Shown piece after piece: positions 5,848-55,272 of a stretch of DNA of 64,000 nt. Source of the DNA: Legionella quinlivanii. Lineage in GTDB: Bacteria > Pseudomonadota > Gammaproteobacteria > Legionellales > Legionellaceae. Positions within the stretch are counted from its first letter, which is position 1, and each line of letters begins with the position of its first letter. Made by a program: the position numbers and the translations under genes. Under the pieces are notes generated by a model. It did not search any database, was not told the origin of the DNA, and worked only from the letters and a program-made list of their open reading frames with translations. The stretch lies in contig NZ_UGOX01000001.1 of assembly GCF_900461555.1 (NCBI RefSeq), positions 2,617,501 through 2,681,500 on the forward strand, in the 5' to 3' direction.

Positions 5848-5941
5848 GTCTTTGCGAGCCTCAGCGAAGCAATCCAGCCCATAACCCTGCTCAAAGCTTG
5901 ATCTGGATTGCTTTACTTCGTTCGCAAAGACGACAGCTTAG
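5848..5941. repeat. dispersed hairpin repeat, copy A
   Basis: Intergenic inverted-repeat element. Terminal arms GTCTTTGCGA (5848-5857) and TCGCAAAGAC (5932-5941) enclose GAAGCAATCCAG and its near-complement CTGGATTGCTT. A flank containing GGCGTTGTTGC (from 5809) recurs next to copies C and E. It lies after motB and before the convergent orphan gene. Confidence 0.85.
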
Positions 5942-17744: not shown

Positions 17745-17828
17745 GTCTTTGCGAACGAAGTGAAGCAATCCAGATCCAACTCTGAACAGGCTTAAGAGCT
17801 GGATTGCTTCGCTGTCGCTCGCAAAAAC
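17745..17828. repeat. dispersed hairpin repeat, copy B
   Basis: Arms GTCTTTGCGA (17745-17754) and TCGCAAAAAC (17819-17828), with GAAGCAATCCAG inside and CTGGATTGCTTC facing it. About 84 bp, just after rph, so it would also fold at the end of the rph transcript. Confidence 0.85.
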
Positions 17829-27313: not shown

Positions 27314-27523
27314 ATGAAAAAATCGACTTTAGCCGTGGCCGCATTACTGACTGCCCTTTCAGCTGCTTCTGTTGTTCCTGCTGCCTATGCTGATTCAACT
27401 ACTACTCAAGCAAGTGGTTGCGCTGGTTGCAAAGGCTGCAAAGGTTGTAAAGGCTGCAACGGATGCAAAGGTTGCAAAGGTTGCAATGGCTGCAAAGGTT
27501 GTGGCGGCTGCAGCGGTAGCTAA
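27314..27523 (+). CDS. exported Cys-triplet repeat peptide
   Basis: 69 residues. Residues 1-26 are a signal peptide (MKKSTLAVAALL...AAYA), residues 27-34 a Ser/Thr linker, and the rest is an uninterrupted G-C-x triplet array with 11 cysteines at exact three-residue spacing (x is K, N, A, G or S). Synonymous codons vary between triplets, so the array is kept by protein-level selection rather than by recent slippage. A strong AAAGGAAGG Shine-Dalgarno and an intrinsic terminator suggest high expression. Similar Cys-rich exported peptides (HvfA, BufA types) are copper-binding RiPPs modified by DUF692 enzymes, but no DUF692 gene is near. Metal binding or a modified peptide is inference. Confidence 0.8.
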   Translation: MKKSTLAVAALLTALSAASVVPAAYADSTTTQASGCAGCKGCKGCKGCNGCKGCKGCNGCKGCGGCSGS

Positions 27524-30850: not shown

Positions 30851-30934
30851 GTCTTTGCGAGCGTCAGCGGAGCAATCCATCTTTTAAGGTTATTCAAGTT
30901 TCGATCTGGATTGCTTCACTTCGTTTGCTAAGAC
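30851..30934. repeat. dispersed hairpin repeat, copy C
   Basis: Left arm GTCTTTGCGA (30851-30860), right arm TTGCTAAGAC (30925-30934, one change), with AGCAATCCA and TGGATTGCTTCACTTCG inside. The flank GGCATTGTTGCATAAATG precedes it. It lies between two convergent hydrolase genes. Confidence 0.85.
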
Positions 30935-30954: not shown

Positions 30955-32460
30955 TTAGCTCCTCTTAGAGAGCTGCTCTTCTATCCGCTGAATCATGTAG
31001 GGGAAAAACGGATTGGATGAAAGTCGAAGGATTGAATCCAGACTGACAATAAGCACTTGCCGTTCACCATGCGAAGCAATGGTTCCTAATTGAACTCCAT
31101 AGTCCATTGAGTCAGGAAAAAGACCATACAGACTATCGTTCATTGGAAAAGGAATTGCAACATGCGACAAAGAATAGACATCACGCGGATAAGTCAATCC
31201 TAGTGGAAAAATACGTTCATTAACCGTTCCAGCATTAGTGACACGTTCAACCACATCAACACTGTCATTATTCGCATTCGTGATAATGACGCTGCGGTAG
31301 TTTCGGGGAGGAGCATTCAGAAGCCTTTCCACTGCCGTATCTGCTGAAGGACGTAATAAAAGACCTAATTTTGATGCCCTGTTCAAATCAAATAATACTA
31401 ATTCACTGCCATTTGCAGGAAGATTAGCATAGAAAGATCGGATTATCGCTCGCGTACTGACTGTAAAATCCATTACAGACTGAAAGGTTAATACCGGTGG
31501 GAGTTCAACTAGTCGACCTTCATTGGCAAGGCGTGTTATCTGTTGTTGCAATACTGTAGTTAGACGATGAGACTGACTTGCTGCATTGACTGGAAAAGAG
31601 TTGTATTTAAATGGATTGAATTCAGGGAGTATAGTGAGCCAGGCTGCTTTTGCAAAGGGTGGTAATATCGCTGGCAAGGCAGCAAAGCCCGCAAAACGTG
31701 CGAAGCGTGTAATTCCAATCATGGGTGAAATTAATATAATCCTGTCTGGCTTGGTTAATTCTTTATTTTCAAGAGAATCAAGAGCATATTTTAATGCCAG
31801 TGCACCCCCATTTGAAAAACCAACAAGATGCAGAGGTTGCGACGGGCCTATGCGTCTTCGTGCTTCACGTACTGCTAGCCGGGTTGCCGCCAACCAGTCT
31901 TCCCATTTCACATCAGTTAAGGCAGCCGGTACTGTGCCATGGGCTGGTAATCTAATCGCGATTGCCACGTAACCATGAGCAACATATCGTCTGGCGATAT
32001 GGCGCAAGCTATAAGGAGAGTCCGTCAACCCATGTAATAAGACTACAGCGCCGACAGCTGGACCCTGGGGATCAAGTATATAGGAACGATTCCAGTCAGT
32101 AGAAAATTTTTCAGGATAAACCGGGCTGCCGGAGAAATATCGATTACCTGGAATGCGCTGCTTGCTAGTTAATTTTTCAGTTACCTCAGTGCGCACAGCA
32201 TCAAAAAGAGAATTTTCTATGTCGATGTATTGTGGCCAGCCAAGCTTATCCAGTTCTTTAGCCTGCTTCTCCTTTGGAACATAAGTATGCCATAGCTCTA
32301 ATGCAGGGCCTCGCTGTAACTCAAATATCCTTAATCCAAGTAAAATTAAAAGACTTAAACAGATAAGCTTGATTAGTGGTTTTAACCATGTAAATAATTT
32401 GACTCTCATTAAGGGGGCTCTTTGGTACCACATCCTGAACGCATTCATCCAGAATATCAT
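30955..32460 (-). CDS. membrane-anchored alpha/beta hydrolase
   Basis: 501 residues from an ATG preceded by GAGGGA. A basic head and one transmembrane anchor (about 29-45) are followed by a serine hydrolase domain: VVLLHGLTDSPYSLRHIA (oxyanion region, about 140-157), the nucleophile motif GFSNGGA (about 217), and a late SHVAIPFP segment that may carry the catalytic His. The catalytic Asp is not certain. It looks like a lipase or lysophospholipase-type monoacylglycerol hydrolase facing the periplasm. A LetA-like box lies only 23 bp ahead of its start codon, but it may serve the RNA on the other strand. Confidence 0.75.
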   Translation of the reverse strand: MIFWMNAFRMWYQRAPLMRVKLFTWLKPLIKLICLSLLILLGLRIFELQRGPALELWHTYVPKEKQAKELDKLGWPQYIDIENSLFDAVRTEVTEKLTSKQRIPGNRYFSGSPVYPEKFSTDWNRSYILDPQGPAVGAVVLLHGLTDSPYSLRHIARRYVAHGYVAIAIRLPAHGTVPAALTDVKWEDWLAATRLAVREARRRIGPSQPLHLVGFSNGGALALKYALDSLENKELTKPDRIILISPMIGITRFARFAGFAALPAILPPFAKAAWLTILPEFNPFKYNSFPVNAASQSHRLTTVLQQQITRLANEGRLVELPPVLTFQSVMDFTVSTRAIIRSFYANLPANGSELVLFDLNRASKLGLLLRPSADTAVERLLNAPPRNYRSVIITNANNDSVDVVERVTNAGTVNERIFPLGLTYPRDVYSLSHVAIPFPMNDSLYGLFPDSMDYGVQLGTIASHGERQVLIVSLDSILRLSSNPFFPYMIQRIEEQLSKRS

Positions 32461-32482
32461 TTAGTTTCCCTCAAATTCAAAT

Positions 32483-32496
32483 TGAGATATTTCTCA
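32483..32496. promoter_or_regulatory. LetA (GacA/UvrY-type) binding box
   Basis: TGAGATATTTCTCA matches the published Legionella LetA box TNAGAAATTTCTNA at 11 of 12 defined positions; it extends to the arms TTGAGA and TCTCAA. In L. pneumophila such boxes activate the Rsm regulatory RNAs. Its centre is about 64 bp upstream of the predicted RNA start. Confidence 0.7.
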
Positions 32497-32519
32497 AGTG
32501 ACGCGCATACAGTTTCTTA

Positions 32520-32548
32520 ATGACCCATTGCCAAGTAAAGACTACACT
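32520..32548 (+). promoter_or_regulatory. promoter of the Rsm-like RNA
   Basis: ATGACC (32520-32525), a 17-bp spacer and TACACT (32543-32548). It is a modest match to sigma-70, as expected for an activator-dependent promoter. The start would lie near 32553-32555. Confidence 0.45.
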
Positions 32549-32552
32549 TTAG

Positions 32553-32660
32553 GGTAAGGATAGTTGCAAATTCAGGAACAGGATGTTCCAGAACAGGGAA
32601 ACGGCGCAAGGATGCGCTGGTCCACAAGGATGTGGATTTGCAACTTCCACACTCATTCGA
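32553..32660 (+). ncRNA. Rsm/CsrB-type CsrA-sequestering sRNA candidate
   Basis: Three consecutive small stem-loops present a GGA motif in the loop: GGAAC-AGGAT-GTTCC (32575-32589), GCGC-AAGGAT-GCGC (32604-32617) and CCAC-AAGGAT-GTGG (32622-32635). They are enclosed by a perfect 9-bp stem GTTGCAAAT (32563-32571) / ATTTGCAAC (32636-32644). Further GGA motifs occur at 32558 and near 32596. This is the layout of RNAs that titrate CsrA, and a LetA box lies upstream at the right distance. It would link the LetA/LetS two-component system to CsrA control of growth and transmission. The 3' end is not fixed: I see no U-rich terminator. The alternative is a GGA-hairpin repeat element without function. 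Confidence 0.7.
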
Positions 32661-32703: not shown

Positions 32704-32786
32704 GTCTTTAAAGCTTTGGCGAAGCAACCAATTTTGACACCATACAGGCAATGGTCACTGGATTGCTTCACTTTGTTCGCAATGAC
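32704..32786. repeat. dispersed hairpin repeat, copy D (degenerate)
   Basis: The left arm GTCTTTAAAGC is decayed; the right half CTGGATTGCTTCACTTTG and TCGCAATGAC (32777-32786) matches copy F closely. It lies just downstream of murI, where its transcript could fold. Confidence 0.7.
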
Positions 32787-32794
32787 CATACACC

Positions 32795-33640
32795 TTAAGC
32801 AGCTCGAGTTGAATTATCCGCCTCTACTGGGAAACAGGCGTCCACCAGTTCAATATGGTGATCTTTTAATACTTCACCCAGAAAAATCTCTCCCACCGTC
32901 TGGAAACGACGAATAGAGTCGGTTACCAGATATTCGATTTTTCCCGAAGAAGTAGAGTCTGTTTGCAGATGATGCGAATACAATAGCTTTTGAAACGCAT
33001 AGGCAGTTGCCTCGGCAGAATCAACTACCGCGACTGATTCGGGCAGCAACGTCGCAAGCAAGGGGCGAAAAACTGGGAAATGCGTACAGCCCAGCAATAA
33101 AGTATCTTCGTTCTTGAATTCAGACAGATAATAAAGCAGCGCTTCGCGTGCTACTGCATTATTCACCATCCCCTCTTCGGCAAGCGCTACCAAAACGCTA
33201 CAGGCACGCGCACTGATAGACGCCTGAGGCAGCTGTTCGGTAATTAAGCGTTGGTAAGCATTGGAGGCAATAGTGGTCTCGGTGGCAAACACGGTAATTT
33301 GCTGGTTGCGTGTGGCAGCCACTACTGCACCTGCTCCCGGCCGAACCACTCCAAGCACCGGTATTTCCGTAAACATGGCCTGCAAATAGGGCAAGGCGGC
33401 AGTGGTTGCCGTATTACAGGCAATCACTAGCGCCTTGATGCGTCTGGCTATCAATAATCTGGCCATCTGAACAGCATATTGTTGCACAGTTTCTGCACTT
33501 TTCGTTCCATAAGGCAAACGGGCTGTATCCCCCAGATAGATGAAGGACTCTCTGGGTAATAAGCTTTTCAAGGCACGCAGAACGGTCAGGCCGCCCATCC
33601 CTGAGTCGAATACACCGACTGGCAAATTATTATTATTCAT
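32795..33640 (-). CDS. murI: glutamate racemase
   Basis: Makes D-glutamate for peptidoglycan. 281 residues with GVFDSGMGGLTV (9-20), GDTARLPYG, the first catalytic cysteine C75 in IACNTATT and the second C185 in LLGCTHFP, both with their partner residues. A C-terminal tail of about 20 residues is variable. It starts 20 bp after the 1366-residue orphan gene, so it may share that transcript, an odd pairing for an essential enzyme. Confidence 0.96.
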   Translation of the reverse strand: MNNNNLPVGVFDSGMGGLTVLRALKSLLPRESFIYLGDTARLPYGTKSAETVQQYAVQMARLLIARRIKALVIACNTATTAALPYLQAMFTEIPVLGVVRPGAGAVVAATRNQQITVFATETTIASNAYQRLITEQLPQASISARACSVLVALAEEGMVNNAVAREALLYYLSEFKNEDTLLLGCTHFPVFRPLLATLLPESVAVVDSAEATAYAFQKLLYSHHLQTDSTSSGKIEYLVTDSIRRFQTVGEIFLGEVLKDHHIELVDACFPVEADNSTRAA

Positions 33641-33660: not shown

Positions 33661-36600
33661 TTATGGAGAACCAACCGAAGGGCTTTGAGGCCGATTGGCA
33701 TTCTCCTGTTCTAATTCCTTAAGCGCACGTCCATCCTGAATAGCCGTTTTATACATATTACCGGAATTCGTGACCTGCTTTTCCACACGCTTCAAATCAG
33801 CCTGCGCCTTTTCCTGCTGGATTACCATCTTACTAAATCCCTGGGTTAAGGCTTTAAATTCAGGATTATTTTTTATTATTTTATAATTGGGGTCACTCCA
33901 TACACTCGATCTTGGAGGAACATACGCAGTAGTGCCCATACGAATGCATTCTTCACTGATTTTAAATCGAGGATGAAGTTCACCGACAGCTAATAAAGCA
34001 CCATACAATAATCTGACCTCATCCGCATTATCCCCGGTTAGCAGAAACGGATGATCCTTATCTGGGGCTTTCGCTAAACCGGTAAGCGCCTTCATAGCCA
34101 TGAATATGGCATCCTTAGCCATCTGATCTTCTGTACGTTTCTTATTAGGAACCAACGTCAGTGATTTTGAAGGATTATAGGCCTCTTCTCCCTTGCTGGT
34201 TTTAGGGGCCATATCCTGCGAATGGCGTCTCTCAAGTACGGTACTGGTAGTGATGGTGACCGTACCATCACTGCCTTTGGTTTGATGCTCCAGAATATAG
34301 GGCCGGACTTTGCCTACCGGAACCTTTTTCTCTGTTTCATAATCCTTGACTGCCACCCCGATATCAAGCTGTAAAGCCTGATTATAGGTCGCCTGTTTTC
34401 TTTGTCCGTCTTCCTTCTTAATCAGATCATCAAAGACAGCAATATCTTCGTCTTTGCCAACCTTTACCTTAAACTCAGTAAACTGGATTGTATACTCCCC
34501 TTTTTTCGCTTCCTCAACGGCCGCCAGCAATCCTTTTTGCATGCGTTCATCGGAAGCATTGGGGTTACCCTTTAATACATCCTCTATTTTGAGATACATA
34601 TCCAATTCGGTTTTAATCTCATTATATGCTTGGGTAAGAAAGGCTTTTTCTTTCGTGATTGCCTTGGCTTTTTTGCTATTAAGATCATTATCTGGTAATG
34701 ATTTGAGGTGCTCTTCAATCAGAGCCAAATGCGCTTTAAGTGCAGGGATCACAATATTACACATTTTTTCTGTGTTTATTAGATCCTCCTCTATTCGCGC
34801 CGCATTGGTTTTAGACAGGCCCTCAAATGCAGGATCAAGCCAGAGGGCTTCCTGTAACTCACTGAAGGACTTTAAATAAGAATGGCCGGACTCTTTCTGT
34901 AAACTATGAAGCTTATCGAGATTCATTTCAACTACAAGATGGCTAGCATCTATGGAAGCGCTTAGCTCCTGAAGGCTCATGTTCTTGTATTTATCACTCT
35001 TGATACCCTGGGTCAGGAAACTATAGACACTCTCCGTTAATTGCCGGCTAAATTCAGGCGGCATTGCTCCTTGTAAAGCAGGATCATTAGTGATCAAACG
35101 ATCCAATTCAGCCCGATCCTTTGCTGCTCCCAGATGCGTACACAATTGCTGAAACTGATTCGTTGTAAATTGCTGATTTTTGGATAAGCCCAGCATAAAA
35201 TCAGCAACTCTTTTCCTGCCCGCGGGATTTGCGCCATTCATAAAAGCGCGTAAATCCTGATTATGATCATGCTGATGTGAAATGTTGTTCTTGGGATCGT
35301 GGCGGTTTAAAGCGCTTCTATCGTCATTATAGCCGAAGGCTCGATTAAAGGCGGCTTCTTCAACATGCCGATTAGCCCTTTCCAGAATTTCCCAAAGTTT
35401 TTTAACTGAATCAGCAAATGCCTGTGGCTGTCCTGAAAGCTCAGCCGTTGTTTTAGAATCAATGTATTCATTGATACTGCGCACCAGACTGGGGTCAATT
35501 TTTACGTTGAGACCTTTTAAGGTATTCGCAATAGCGGCATTATGAATCTTGTGGAATAGCCCAAGATTTGTGTTTTCCTGAACCAGTGCATCGAGATTCA
35601 GATGCTTGTCGTTCAGCAAATCCCTGATTTTATCAGCGTCAGTCCGGCTAGCTAATAATGAAATCAATTCGCCATTGGCAGCAAGAGAAGCCTGCTTTTT
35701 TGGGGGAAGATTCAGGATGACTTTTTTCAGTTCCGGTCGTTGATCAAGCGAAACCCCGAGGACATTCTCGGCTCGGATAATCATGGCTCGTTCACCGGCA
35801 ACCTTCTGAGCCGCCTGCATACGAGCTGGATTCACCCAGTCCTGGCGATTAATATGCAGGTCAGTTAAGGCTTGTTTAAATTCAGCCTCTGAAATACCTG
35901 GCTTGGTTAAATTAACCAACAGATTCAAATCAGCATCAGCAGGGTATTTATTAAGCAAGGCCTGAATCAGTTCTGCTTCAAGATTCTGCGCATCGTTTTG
36001 ACTTAAGCCGGGAAGCACGGTTTGCATTACCGGCGGCAAGCCCTCCCAACCGTTTGCCCCTACAATCCGCGACAAATCAGCGTAATTCTTTTCCGCCAGA
36101 AATTGCGGCATCTGGTAAAGATGTGCATAGGCACGAATCTTCAGATTATAGGGAGAATTTAAATCGTTATCGATCAAATCATTGGCTTTATCATGCCCCA
36201 ATACTGCGGCAACTGCCGCTTTCAGTTTATTAGTATCATCGGCGGCTATAATTCCATTTAAAAGCCCTGAATCGGCATTCTTCAGGGTAGCCGGTATTAA
36301 ACCGGCCAGAGCCATTTTGCGTGCCTCCATTAAGCGGGCCGGATCACTGAAATAATCCTTGAACGATTGCAATTCCTCAGGCTTTGGATTGGCGGGTAAG
36401 AATTGCGCAGCGTAATTGGCAGAGGTATAGGCGGGATCAAGTAGAGTGGCTAAACGATCAGCATGTACCCTGGCCTCTCCCCAGTCTTTGTCCGTCTGCG
36501 GTATTTTAGGCAGTAAATTACTGCGAACATGAGCAATGGTACTCAGTTTTTTAATTTCTTCTAAATTGGTAAAGGCTTCACAGACCGATTTTTTAGCCGG

Positions 36601-37761
36601 TGTATTTAAACCAAAAGCCGAAACGGTCTCCAGTACCTGGGAGAAGTCTTTCTGCGTTTTTGCCCTGGCCAGCGCTTCAAGGGCTGCCACATCATTCATC
36701 GTCGCAATTTTATCAGTCAGAGCTTTGCTGGCTGCGACTTGCCGGAAGCTGTTTATAGTGCTCTGGGTGACTGCTTCGCCAATATACTGATTCAGTGCAT
36801 CTTTGTTACCTGCCTGGCTGCCATACTCATTGGCTAACGCTGCTTGCAAATTGTCAAGTATGGTCATTCCAGCGAGTTGCAATAATGTATCTTGCCGCTG
36901 CTCTGCGTTCAATCTGGCTTTGAGATATTCTCCCCCCATCGCGCCACGAAGTGCTTTGGCATCTTCAGCGTCTACTTTCTGATCATAAGGAGCCCCAAGA
37001 TGAGCAGCGAAATCAGCATCATCATTTCGTTGAATCATAGCAAGCAGATCATTATGGCGATCTTGCTGACTTGCCAGAAGACGCGCCCTTGCTTCAAGCG
37101 CCTTAAGCGCGAGGGAGTGTGTAATTTGGGCACCGACTCCCTCAGTAGTCATCTTATCAAGAGCAGGCTGGGGAATTTGCCAGTTCTGAAGCACGCGCCG
37201 AAATGCCGCATCATCATCGTCATCAATTGCCTGCAGCAAGGCATCTAATTGCTGAGAATCGTCGCTTGCTTTCAGTTTGGATTCGAGATAGTAAGTCTGG
37301 GCAGCCAAGCTGATTTCAGCAGCTGCGGGATTGGAAATGACTCCCTCATTGCTGGCATCCCAGGGCAATTTTGATTTGGTCAGATCGCCAAAGTGGTTTT
37401 TATAAGGGTCTACTACTAATTGTCTTCGTAATTCGACAGGATTATCGAGAATGAATTTTACGAGATGGCTTTCATGTATACCTAGACGGCTAATCACCCG
37501 TTGTTTGGCAACCTGTTTGTAAAGCTCCACAAAATTGGGTGCATCATCTGCACCATCTTTAGCAAGGTCGTCAACCGGGTCCACCCCATTCTCTTTCCAG
37601 AACGCCTCATGGGCTTTAACCGCCGCCTTAAAGGCCGCTTCATCATTTGGATCAGCCGCAAAAATTGCATCCAGTGCTCGCTGGGCTTTTTCATGTTTCT
37701 CTTTATTATTGTTATGATGTAGTTTCTTTATGGCATCTTGTAATGTCTGATTCTGAGGCAT
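33661..37761 (-). CDS. 1366-residue helical-repeat protein, effector candidate
   Basis: Not recognised. The protein is almost wholly helical, acidic and free of Cys-rich or transmembrane parts. Modules of about 50-110 residues recur with the core pattern LL..I...DDA.F...L (for example at about 33-55, 175-200, 240-260, 365-385, 510-530 and 635-660), alternating with LKARL/KLKAS-type linkers. The C-terminal third (about 980-1340) differs: coiled coil, a TTSTVLERRHS region, and a PRSSVWSDP block, which could be a catalytic or binding head. The last residues are Pro/Ser-rich. Size, lack of a signal peptide and orphan status fit a Dot/Icm effector, but no motif proves it. Upstream of murI by 20 bp. 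Confidence 0.6.
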   Translation of the reverse strand: MPQNQTLQDAIKKLHHNNNKEKHEKAQRALDAIFAADPNDEAAFKAAVKAHEAFWKENGVDPVDDLAKDGADDAPNFVELYKQVAKQRVISRLGIHESHLVKFILDNPVELRRQLVVDPYKNHFGDLTKSKLPWDASNEGVISNPAAAEISLAAQTYYLESKLKASDDSQQLDALLQAIDDDDDAAFRRVLQNWQIPQPALDKMTTEGVGAQITHSLALKALEARARLLASQQDRHNDLLAMIQRNDDADFAAHLGAPYDQKVDAEDAKALRGAMGGEYLKARLNAEQRQDTLLQLAGMTILDNLQAALANEYGSQAGNKDALNQYIGEAVTQSTINSFRQVAASKALTDKIATMNDVAALEALARAKTQKDFSQVLETVSAFGLNTPAKKSVCEAFTNLEEIKKLSTIAHVRSNLLPKIPQTDKDWGEARVHADRLATLLDPAYTSANYAAQFLPANPKPEELQSFKDYFSDPARLMEARKMALAGLIPATLKNADSGLLNGIIAADDTNKLKAAVAAVLGHDKANDLIDNDLNSPYNLKIRAYAHLYQMPQFLAEKNYADLSRIVGANGWEGLPPVMQTVLPGLSQNDAQNLEAELIQALLNKYPADADLNLLVNLTKPGISEAEFKQALTDLHINRQDWVNPARMQAAQKVAGERAMIIRAENVLGVSLDQRPELKKVILNLPPKKQASLAANGELISLLASRTDADKIRDLLNDKHLNLDALVQENTNLGLFHKIHNAAIANTLKGLNVKIDPSLVRSINEYIDSKTTAELSGQPQAFADSVKKLWEILERANRHVEEAAFNRAFGYNDDRSALNRHDPKNNISHQHDHNQDLRAFMNGANPAGRKRVADFMLGLSKNQQFTTNQFQQLCTHLGAAKDRAELDRLITNDPALQGAMPPEFSRQLTESVYSFLTQGIKSDKYKNMSLQELSASIDASHLVVEMNLDKLHSLQKESGHSYLKSFSELQEALWLDPAFEGLSKTNAARIEEDLINTEKMCNIVIPALKAHLALIEEHLKSLPDNDLNSKKAKAITKEKAFLTQAYNEIKTELDMYLKIEDVLKGNPNASDERMQKGLLAAVEEAKKGEYTIQFTEFKVKVGKDEDIAVFDDLIKKEDGQRKQATYNQALQLDIGVAVKDYETEKKVPVGKVRPYILEHQTKGSDGTVTITTSTVLERRHSQDMAPKTSKGEEAYNPSKSLTLVPNKKRTEDQMAKDAIFMAMKALTGLAKAPDKDHPFLLTGDNADEVRLLYGALLAVGELHPRFKISEECIRMGTTAYVPPRSSVWSDPNYKIIKNNPEFKALTQGFSKMVIQQEKAQADLKRVEKQVTNSGNMYKTAIQDGRALKELEQENANRPQSPSVGSP

Positions 37762-47759: not shown

Positions 47760-47843
47760 GTCTTTGCAAACGAAGTGAAGTAATCCAGATCGAACCCTGA
47801 ACAAAGTGATAAGCTGGGTTGCTTCGCTAAGGCTCGCAAAGAC
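47760..47843. repeat. dispersed hairpin repeat, copy E
   Basis: Arms GTCTTTGCAA (47760-47769) and TCGCAAAGAC (47834-47843), with AGTAATCCAGATCG and GGGTTGCTTCGC inside. The flank GGCGTTGTTGCATAAATA (from 47732) matches copies A and C. It ends in seven T residues. It lies between the LuxR and orphan genes. Confidence 0.85.
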
Positions 47844-55188: not shown

Positions 55189-55272
55189 GTCTTTGCGAGC
55201 GTCAGTGAAGCAATCCAACTCCCAACTTTGTTCAGCTTTCGATCTGGATTGCTTCACTTCATTCGCAATGAC
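55189..55272. repeat. dispersed hairpin repeat, copy F
   Basis: Arms GTCTTTGCGA (55189-55198) and TCGCAATGAC (55263-55272), with GAAGCAATCCAAC and GATCTGGATTGCTTCACTTC inside. It lies between the helicase-fusion gene and the convergent greA gene. Confidence 0.85.

What the first reader, a model, noticed from the sequence alone, without database searches (positions are those of the whole stretch)
32483..32660. LetA box plus triple GGA-loop RNA: an Rsm-type sRNA candidate upstream of a hydrolase
Seen: TGAGATATTTCTCA (11 of 12 match to the LetA box), a 17-bp-spaced promoter, then three adjacent stem-loops each with GGA in the loop, inside a perfect 9-bp closing stem. Known: Legionella LetA activates Rsm RNAs that sequester CsrA through loop GGA motifs. 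Inference: this is an Rsm family member, either an orthologue of RsmX/Y/Z or an extra one. It would tie this locus to the growth-phase switch. The missing terminator is the weak point.
Basis: partly seen in the sequence, partly recalled or inferred. Interest (0 to 1): 0.88.

Follow-up and report, generated by a model that had tools for sequence, protein, structure and literature searches.

The report
Second LetA-driven Rsm RNA in Legionella
A Legionella genome carries, besides its ordinary Rsm-type regulatory RNA, a second and differently built one that probably soaks up the regulator CsrA when growth ends, and relatives of this RNA have multiplied to several copies in other Legionella species.

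Summary
Window 32483-32648 (+ strand) holds a palindromic LetA-type box, a promoter with a 17-bp spacer, and an RNA of about 95 nt in which a 10-bp closing stem encloses three GGA hairpins. A covariance model built from ten RNAs of a different Legionella class (class A: hairpins in a row plus terminator, near gyrB in this genome, matched in 130 of 143 Legionellaceae genomes) picks this RNA as its second-best hit in the genome (E 1.4e-7). The window sequence was not in the training set. The RNA therefore belongs to the Rsm kind.

It is an extra lineage ("class B"), not the gyrB-linked RNA. 29 copies of at least 45 bits lie in 13 genomes. 26 of 29 keep the box with at most one mismatch, 54-56 nt upstream. 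Stems covary and the closing stem is nearly invariant. Terminator-like sites occur in 1 of 29 class B against 9 of 10 class A RNAs, so the missing terminator is a family trait. Three genomes carry 4-7 copies. In four genomes 13 places adjoin, tail to tail, a small LuxR-type HTH gene or remnant.

The hydrolase link is incidental. CsrA binding and LetA dependence are inferred. Orthology to L. pneumophila RsmX/Y/Z could not be tested.

The parts
32483..32496 (+). LetA-type box TGAGATATTTCTCA, the core of the 16-bp palindrome 32482-32497
   Evidence: Only exact TNAGANATNTCTNA match in the window. The same box lies 54-56 nt upstream of the RNA model start in 26 of 29 class B copies with at most 1 mismatch.
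32515..32525 (+). conserved TCTTAATGACC element holding the -35-like hexamer ATGACC (32520-32525)
   Evidence: Second peak of conservation across 28 copies anchored on the closing stem; TAATG element in 28 of 29 copies.
32543..32548 (+). -10-like hexamer TACACT, 17 bp after ATGACC
   Evidence: A similar hexamer at the same 17-bp spacing in 28 of 29 copies. Not found by the generic sigma-70 scan.
32555..32650 (+). class B Rsm-type RNA (5' end inferred from the -10; 3' end unknown, taken just past the closing stem)
   Evidence: R1 match 32553-32655, 102.6 bits (the window is one of the 8 training sequences). Independent R2 match 32561-32659, 32.7 bits, E 2.5e-9.
32562..32571 (+). 5' arm of closing stem, AGTTGCAAAT
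   Evidence: Pairs with 32636-32645. Six of 11 closing-helix pairs never vary in 29 copies and 99.7% of cells are paired.
32575..32589 (+). hairpin 1, GGAACAGGATGTTCC, GGA in the loop
   Evidence: Pair 39-61 of A6 is GC in 20, AU in 8 and GU in 1 copies. Only 10 of 29 copies keep GGA in this loop.
32592..32602 (+). single-stranded linker AACAGGGAAAC with AGGGA
32603..32618 (+). hairpin 2, GGCGCAAGGATGCGCT, AAGGA in the loop
   Evidence: Strongest covariation: 5 of 7 pairs changed on both sides; GGA in the loop in 28 of 29 copies.
32622..32635 (+). hairpin 3, CCACAAGGATGTGG, AAGGA in the loop
   Evidence: GGA kept in 28 of 29 copies, 84.6% of cells paired. In the window itself a rival pairing is 0.6 kcal/mol more stable.
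32636..32645 (+). 3' arm of closing stem, ATTTGCAACT
32795..33640 (-). murI, glutamate racemase, tail to tail with the RNA
   Evidence: TIGR00067 227.9 bits against cut-off 146.65. Neighbour also in L. quinlivanii (stop 8 nt from the RNA model end) and G002 (134 nt).
30955..32460 (-). alpha/beta hydrolase, divergent neighbour, not judged part of the unit
   Evidence: PF12697/PF12146 over cut-off. Absent beside the RNA in G002.

Best explanation
The + strand at about 32555-32650 encodes a small Rsm-type RNA. LetA, the GacA/UvrY-type response regulator of Legionella, would bind the palindromic box at 32483-32496 when growth slows and switch on the promoter at 32520-32548. The RNA folds into a closed, cloverleaf-like shape: a closing stem around three hairpins carrying GGA, with a fourth GGA in the linker. 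It would bind CsrA at these sites and so release CsrA's target mRNAs, adding to the separate class A Rsm-type RNA near gyrB. Shown here by computation: box, promoter spacing, fold, covariation, kinship to the class A Rsm-type RNA, conservation as a unit, presence of a LetA-type regulator and CsrA. Inferred: transcription, activation by LetA, CsrA binding, growth-phase role. The 3' end is not made by an ordinary terminator; the stable closing stem probably protects an end made by Rho or by an RNase.
For: Model R2, trained on 10 class A RNAs without the window, finds the RNA second-best in the whole genome, E 1.4e-7; the best is class A itself (a training sequence) and the third has E 0.043. It also finds the L. 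quinlivanii copy and the G002 copy. R1 finds 29 copies of at least 45 bits in 13 genomes, 8 of them its training sequences. The box has 0 mismatches in 23, 1 in 3, 2 in 2 and is lost in 1 of 29; the 28 have it at 54-56 nt, against 74 of 11700 random positions of the same loci with at most 1 mismatch in a 16-nt range of spacings. Conservation rises at the box and falls off within about 20 nt past the closing stem. Covariation: 10 of 26 pairs with changes on both sides against 4.6 in shuffles, 96.0% cells paired against 27-42% in slid controls. GGA in 28 of 29 copies in hairpin 2 and in hairpin 3. Regulators present.
Against: No transcript data were available. No Rfam Rsm/Csr family matches, though the class A and class C loci tested there give no Rsm match either, so this says little. 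There is no intrinsic terminator. The generic promoter scan misses the promoter. 19 of 29 copies lack GGA in the loop of hairpin 1, so many relatives have only two GGA hairpins. In the window hairpin 3 competes with a pairing that buries its GGA. The fitted alignment A6 leans toward the structure it was fitted to. The LetA consensus is recalled plus inferred from relatives; no passage read gave it.
Confidence: 0.85

Rival explanations
1. It is the direct orthologue of one of the named L. pneumophila RNAs RsmX, RsmY or RsmZ that has moved and diverged, not a separate lineage.
Against: Class C and class B share neither closing-stem sequence nor the neighbours seen. R1 did not list a class C place at E <= 0.1, under stricter filters. 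Rsm RNAs clearly move, so position settles little.
Confidence: 0.3
2. A mobile repeat or a two-way structural element at gene ends (terminator-like), with no CsrA role.
For: The reverse strand folds as stably. Relatives are multicopy in some species, and 13 of 29 copies have a tail-to-tail open frame ending within 11 nt of the RNA model end. No terminator of its own. Target-site duplications were not looked for.
Against: Single copy in its own genome. The conserved unit is box plus promoter plus RNA at constant spacing, which an inert repeat would not need. Stems change in pairs while GGA of hairpins 2 and 3 stays in 28 of 29 copies. Class A model match.
Confidence: 0.07
3. A leader or antisense RNA acting only in cis on the hydrolase or on murI.
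For: The box lies 22 bp from the first possible hydrolase start and the RNA is tail to tail with murI. With no terminator a longer transcript could run into murI.
Against: G002 lacks the hydrolase neighbour, and murI was not seen in the g31 flanks listed, while box and RNA persist. The RNA model ends 140 nt short of the murI stop here and 8 nt short in L. quinlivanii.
Confidence: 0.05

Closest known systems
Legionella RsmX/RsmY/RsmZ, the LetA-activated CsrA-binding RNAs (PMC5338858 and PMC5928044, passages read)
   Different: Extra RNA beside a separate class A one, closed fold with nearly invariant closing stem, no terminator. Identity with X, Y or Z not testable with the records held.
Class A of this report: Rsm-type RNA near gyrB in this genome, probably RsmY or RsmZ (naming is inference)
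   Same: LetA-type box at 55-60 nt in R1 coordinates, GGA hairpins; its model finds the window RNA.
   Different: Four hairpins in a row; terminator-like site in 9 of 10 loci against 1 of 29 for class B. R2 matches 130 of 143 genomes; class B was seen in 14.
Class C of this report: second R2 hits in g26
   Same: Closed stem around three GGA hairpins, LetA-type box 49-52 nt upstream of the R2 hit in 13 loci, terminator-like site in 3 of 13.
   Different: Closing stem typically ACGAGGA/TCCTCGT instead of AGTTGCAAAT/ATTTGCAACT; other neighbours.
E. coli CsrB/CsrC with UvrY
   Same: Response regulator of the same family. The UvrY site is given as TGTAAGNNNNNNCTTACA (PMC4682653, passages); 15 of 29 class B copies match it exactly, the window copy does not.
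   Different: There the csrB site is centred about 183 nt upstream; the E. coli RNAs are much longer with many more sites (recalled).

Membership tests
CsrA-sequestering Rsm/Csr RNAs | GacA/UvrY/LetA-type box upstream of the promoter | tested here: met
   Exact box at 32483-32496; at 54-56 nt in 28 of 29 copies with at most 2 mismatches.
CsrA-sequestering Rsm/Csr RNAs | Several ANGGA motifs, mainly in hairpin loops | tested here: met
   7 GGA and 4 ANGGA in the window RNA. Hairpins 1 and 2 show GGA in the loop in the minimum-energy fold; hairpin 3 competes with a rival pairing. Hairpin 1 loop keeps GGA in only 10 of 29 copies, hairpins 2 and 3 in 28 each.
CsrA-sequestering Rsm/Csr RNAs | Kinship by sequence and structure to a canonical Rsm-type RNA | tested here: met
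   R2 without the window: E 1.4e-7 in the genome. That class A is itself RsmY or RsmZ is inferred.
CsrA-sequestering Rsm/Csr RNAs | Genome has the LetA-type regulator and CsrA | tested here: met
   NF007018 at cut-off, E 2.3e-83; 5 CsrA matches.
CsrA-sequestering Rsm/Csr RNAs | Intrinsic terminator (usual, not taken as defining) | tested here: not met
   None on the + strand after the RNA; terminator-like site in 1 of 29 class B copies against 9 of 10 class A.
CsrA-sequestering Rsm/Csr RNAs | Binds CsrA and relieves its targets | not testable with these tools
   Needs binding data.
CsrA-sequestering Rsm/Csr RNAs | Transcribed in a LetA-dependent way after exponential growth | not testable with these tools
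   Needs transcript data.
Rfam Rsm/Csr families | Score at the curated threshold | tested here: not met
   No match; one class A, two class B and one class C locus also give no Rsm/Csr match.
L. pneumophila RsmX, RsmY or RsmZ as such | Same gene by sequence or position | not testable with these tools
   No named L. pneumophila genome in hand; Sahr 2009 (PMC2888818) not held.
Plain repeat or MITE | Many scattered copies in the genome | tested here: not met
   1 full copy in the own genome, though 4-7 copies of at least 45 bits in three other genomes. Target-site duplications not tested.

The most novel reading that the evidence does not exclude
Legionellaceae carry a distinct lineage of LetA-driven CsrA-sponge RNAs with a closed fold and no terminator. 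It spreads as a self-contained box-promoter-RNA unit to as many as seven copies per genome, often copied as a pair with a small HTH-only LuxR-type gene that ends at the RNA's tail. Copy number would then set the strength or timing of the growth-phase switch, and the HTH protein might act on the same boxes.
Probability: 0.35. Interest if true: 0.7.

Novelty: new variant of a known kind. Interest (0 to 1): 0.52.

Why it matters
Rsm RNAs gate the switch between growth and transmission in Legionella, and the papers read speak of two or three of them. A further lineage with its own fold and without a terminator, amplified in some species, would mean that the number of CsrA sponges is a variable that evolution has tuned. 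That makes questions testable by comparison: how sponge number relates to the switch, how such RNAs end without a terminator, and why an HTH gene travels with them. The loci of all three classes that I scanned give no Rsm match in Rfam, so annotation of the genus probably misses them.

Tried and rejected
Rfam at gathering and permissive thresholds gave nothing useful (enod40 at 9.9 bits is chance). DNA similarity alone found relatives in 10 of 143 genomes at E <= 0.01; three of these (G137, G090, G096) are 19-22 nt matches without the RNA and were dropped. Alignment A1 was useless because one locus lay on the other strand; redone. RNAalifold on A3 did not give hairpin 3 correctly because MAFFT shifted it by one column, so I set the structure by hand from the individual folds. 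Idea that Rsm amplification follows CsrA number: not supported by eye, since G120, G123 and G138 have 4, 3 and 4 CsrA matches while G089 has 12 and no listed R1 match; no statistic was run. Idea that other members of the genus have a remnant beside murI: no model match in the 8 other g1 murI loci. The third R2 place in the own genome (E 0.043) lacks a LetA box and was dropped. From the class B count I dropped places below 45 bits (among them the decayed or divergent L166, L170 at 4138, L174, L194, L195, L196, L197) and the reverse-strand hits; the R1 hit in G110 (24.8 bits) was not classified. Searches for a printed account of this RNA or of multicopy Rsm RNAs in Legionella (listings and abstract starts seen, passages in ten papers) found none; most subscription papers are not held.

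Full report
What is there. The window lies in a Legionella genome (G000, 3.6 Mb) close to L. quinlivanii: the neighbouring hydrolase is 94% identical to that of L. quinlivanii. The box is the only exact match in the window, with 0.10 expected. The folding energy is far below shuffled sequence, on both strands. One qualification: in the minimum-energy fold hairpin 3 is replaced by a pairing 0.6 kcal/mol lower that buries its GGA, and its own pairs have probabilities of 0.34-0.45; in L. quinlivanii hairpin 3 forms.

Is it more than chance? The stretch is single-copy in its genome. L. quinlivanii (G006, identified because its contig has the same length as the named record of L007) keeps it at 93% identity and G002 at 80%. 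The G002 alignment shows that the match begins at the box and ends just past the closing stem. In G002 the hydrolase is not next to it, while murI is. In L. quinlivanii the murI stop lies 8 nt from the RNA model end; in the window a stretch holding the GAAGCAATCCAG repeat lies between RNA and murI.

The wider family. Four genomes of another genus-level group (g31) gave five further DNA matches with the same layout. A covariance model from eight of these sequences (R1) was run over 143 Legionellaceae genomes: 28 of 143 have a match at E <= 0.1. That figure includes weak hits to a different RNA (class A, below) and some reverse-strand hits, and the stricter filters make it a lower bound. Keeping places of at least 45 bits leaves 29 places in 13 genomes, 8 of them training sequences: 7 in G123, 5 in G138 (L. 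tunisiensis), 4 in G120, 2 each in G128, G129 and G130, and 1 each in G000, G002, G006, G117 (L. brunensis), G121, G125 and G131. G122 adds two weaker places, making 14 of 143 genomes. Named identities come from matching contigs.

Each copy carries its own switch. Of the 29, the box has 0 mismatches in 23, 1 in 3, 2 in 2, and is lost in 1. The 28 with a box have it 54, 55 or 56 nt upstream of the model start (2, 18 and 8 places). Random positions in the same loci reach at most one mismatch in 74 of 11700 tries even with 16 spacings allowed. 28 of 29 have the TAATG element, with a -10-like hexamer 17 bp after it (CATACT in 18, TACACT in 4, TAAAGT in 3, others in 3). Conservation across 28 copies peaks at the box, at TCTTAATGAC and at the -10, is nearly complete in the closing stem, and falls to background within about 20 nt downstream. 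15 of 29 copies, not the window's, match exactly the E. coli UvrY form TGTAAGNNNNNNCTTACA quoted in PMC4682653 (passages; count).

The fold is under selection. On the fitted alignment of 29 copies, 96.0% of cells pair, 10 of 26 pairs show changes on both sides (shuffled mean 4.6, 0 of 500 as high), and slid controls pair in only 27-42% of cells. The alignment was fitted to the structure, so this is favourable by design, but the unfitted MAFFT alignment of 8 sequences already shows 5 pairs with double changes. Hairpin 2 carries most of the covariation. The closing stem is different: six of its 11 pairs never vary, so its sequence as well as its pairing seems constrained. Hairpin 3 is the weakest (84.6% paired). 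GGA is kept in the loop region of hairpin 2 in 28 of 29 and of hairpin 3 in 28 of 29, but of hairpin 1 in only 10 of 29, so many relatives show two GGA hairpins rather than three.

Is it an Rsm RNA? The weak R1 hits that I examined are mostly a second kind of RNA, class A, with a LetA-type box, GGA hairpins in a row and a terminator-like site in 9 of 10 loci, against 1 of 29 in class B and 3 of 13 in class C (my own scan with stem, loop and T-run limits like those). In the own genome class A sits at C1:6460-6569 near gyrB. A model of ten class A RNAs (R2), none of them from the window, matches 130 of 143 genomes at E <= 0.1. In the own genome its best hit is class A (a training sequence), its second is the window RNA (E 1.4e-7), and the third is E 0.043 without a box. 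The genome also has a UvrY/SirA/GacA-family response regulator at the curated cut-off and five CsrA matches. That class A is RsmY or RsmZ is inference: the paper that would settle it is not held, and no named L. pneumophila genome was at hand.

How it most likely works. Passages read say that LetA activates RsmX, RsmY and RsmZ in L. pneumophila and that these sequester CsrA (PMC5338858; PMC5928044); a review adds that IHF helps LetA at RsmY and RsmZ (PMC4273665, passages). By analogy the class B RNA would be made when LetA is active and would bind CsrA through its GGAs. None of these steps is shown here. The 3' end is open: 28 of 29 class B copies show no terminator-like site, so it is probably formed by Rho or by processing against the closing stem. 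In 13 of 29 copies an open frame of at least 90 codons runs tail to tail and ends within 11 nt of the RNA model end, in 5 more at 87-140 nt, and in 11 none was found in the range searched. Most of the 13 belong to one gene family, so they are not independent.

A travelling pair. In G120, G123, G130 and G138, 13 of 36 examined places carry a gene, or its remnant, of about 131 aa with a LuxR-type HTH (PF00196, 47 bits) convergent with the RNA; 11 of the 13 matches end 6-9 nt from it. Its HTH resembles several LuxR-type families weakly and none specially; UvrY/GacA scores 26 bits against a cut-off of 280. Some copies are decayed. This suggests that the RNA and the gene duplicate together; what the protein does is unknown.

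Third kind. In g26, second R2 hits are class C RNAs: a LetA-type box 49-52 nt upstream, a closed stem, typically ACGAGGA/TCCTCGT, around three GGA hairpins and mostly no terminator-like site, with other neighbours. The closed plan is therefore not unique to class B and may include a named RNA such as RsmY; I could not tell.

Verdict. The RNA is an extra, structurally distinct lineage beside the class A RNA near gyrB, and the link to the hydrolase is incidental. The main uncertainty is not whether it is Rsm-like but whether its lineage already has a name, and whether copy number matters in the species where it multiplied. The confidence was lowered by 0.01, for hairpin 3 in the window and hairpin 1 in the relatives.

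Noticed in passing
window 5866-5914, 17762-17810, 30906-30917, 32758-32769, 47777-47825, 55207-55255: GAAGCAATCCAG occurs 10 times with at most one mismatch (0.41 expected), as four facing pairs 37 bp apart and two single sites: a scattered inverted repeat. One single site lies between the RNA and murI.
   Followed up: partly
L163, L164, L165, L166, L167, L169, L171, L172, L175, L176, L178, L179, L182: Small LuxR-type HTH gene or remnant tail to tail with a class B RNA in four genomes, apparently duplicated with it.
   Followed up: partly
L235-L247: Class C Rsm-type RNAs in g26: closed stem typically ACGAGGA/TCCTCGT, LetA-type box 49-52 nt upstream, several genomic places.
   Followed up: partly
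G000:C1:6460-6569 (L090, L227): Class A Rsm-type RNA near gyrB with a LetA-type box and a terminator-like site; its model matches 130 of 143 Legionellaceae genomes, and this locus gives no Rfam match.
   Followed up: yes
window 33661-37761: A 1366-aa protein on the minus strand upstream of murI with no Pfam or NCBIfam match; a similar frame lies beside murI in L. quinlivanii.
   Followed up: no
window 27314-27523: A 69-aa secreted-looking protein with Cys-Gly repeats; weak match to BufA2-type bufferins (20 bits, cut-off 60).
   Followed up: no
L167 2798-2876 and 2938-3032: RAGATH-32 and RAGATH-13 RNA matches over their gathering scores about 1.1-1.4 kb downstream of a class B copy in G123.
   Followed up: no
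G006 and G089: L. quinlivanii has 10 and G089 has 12 CsrA matches, against 5 in the window's genome.
   Followed up: no
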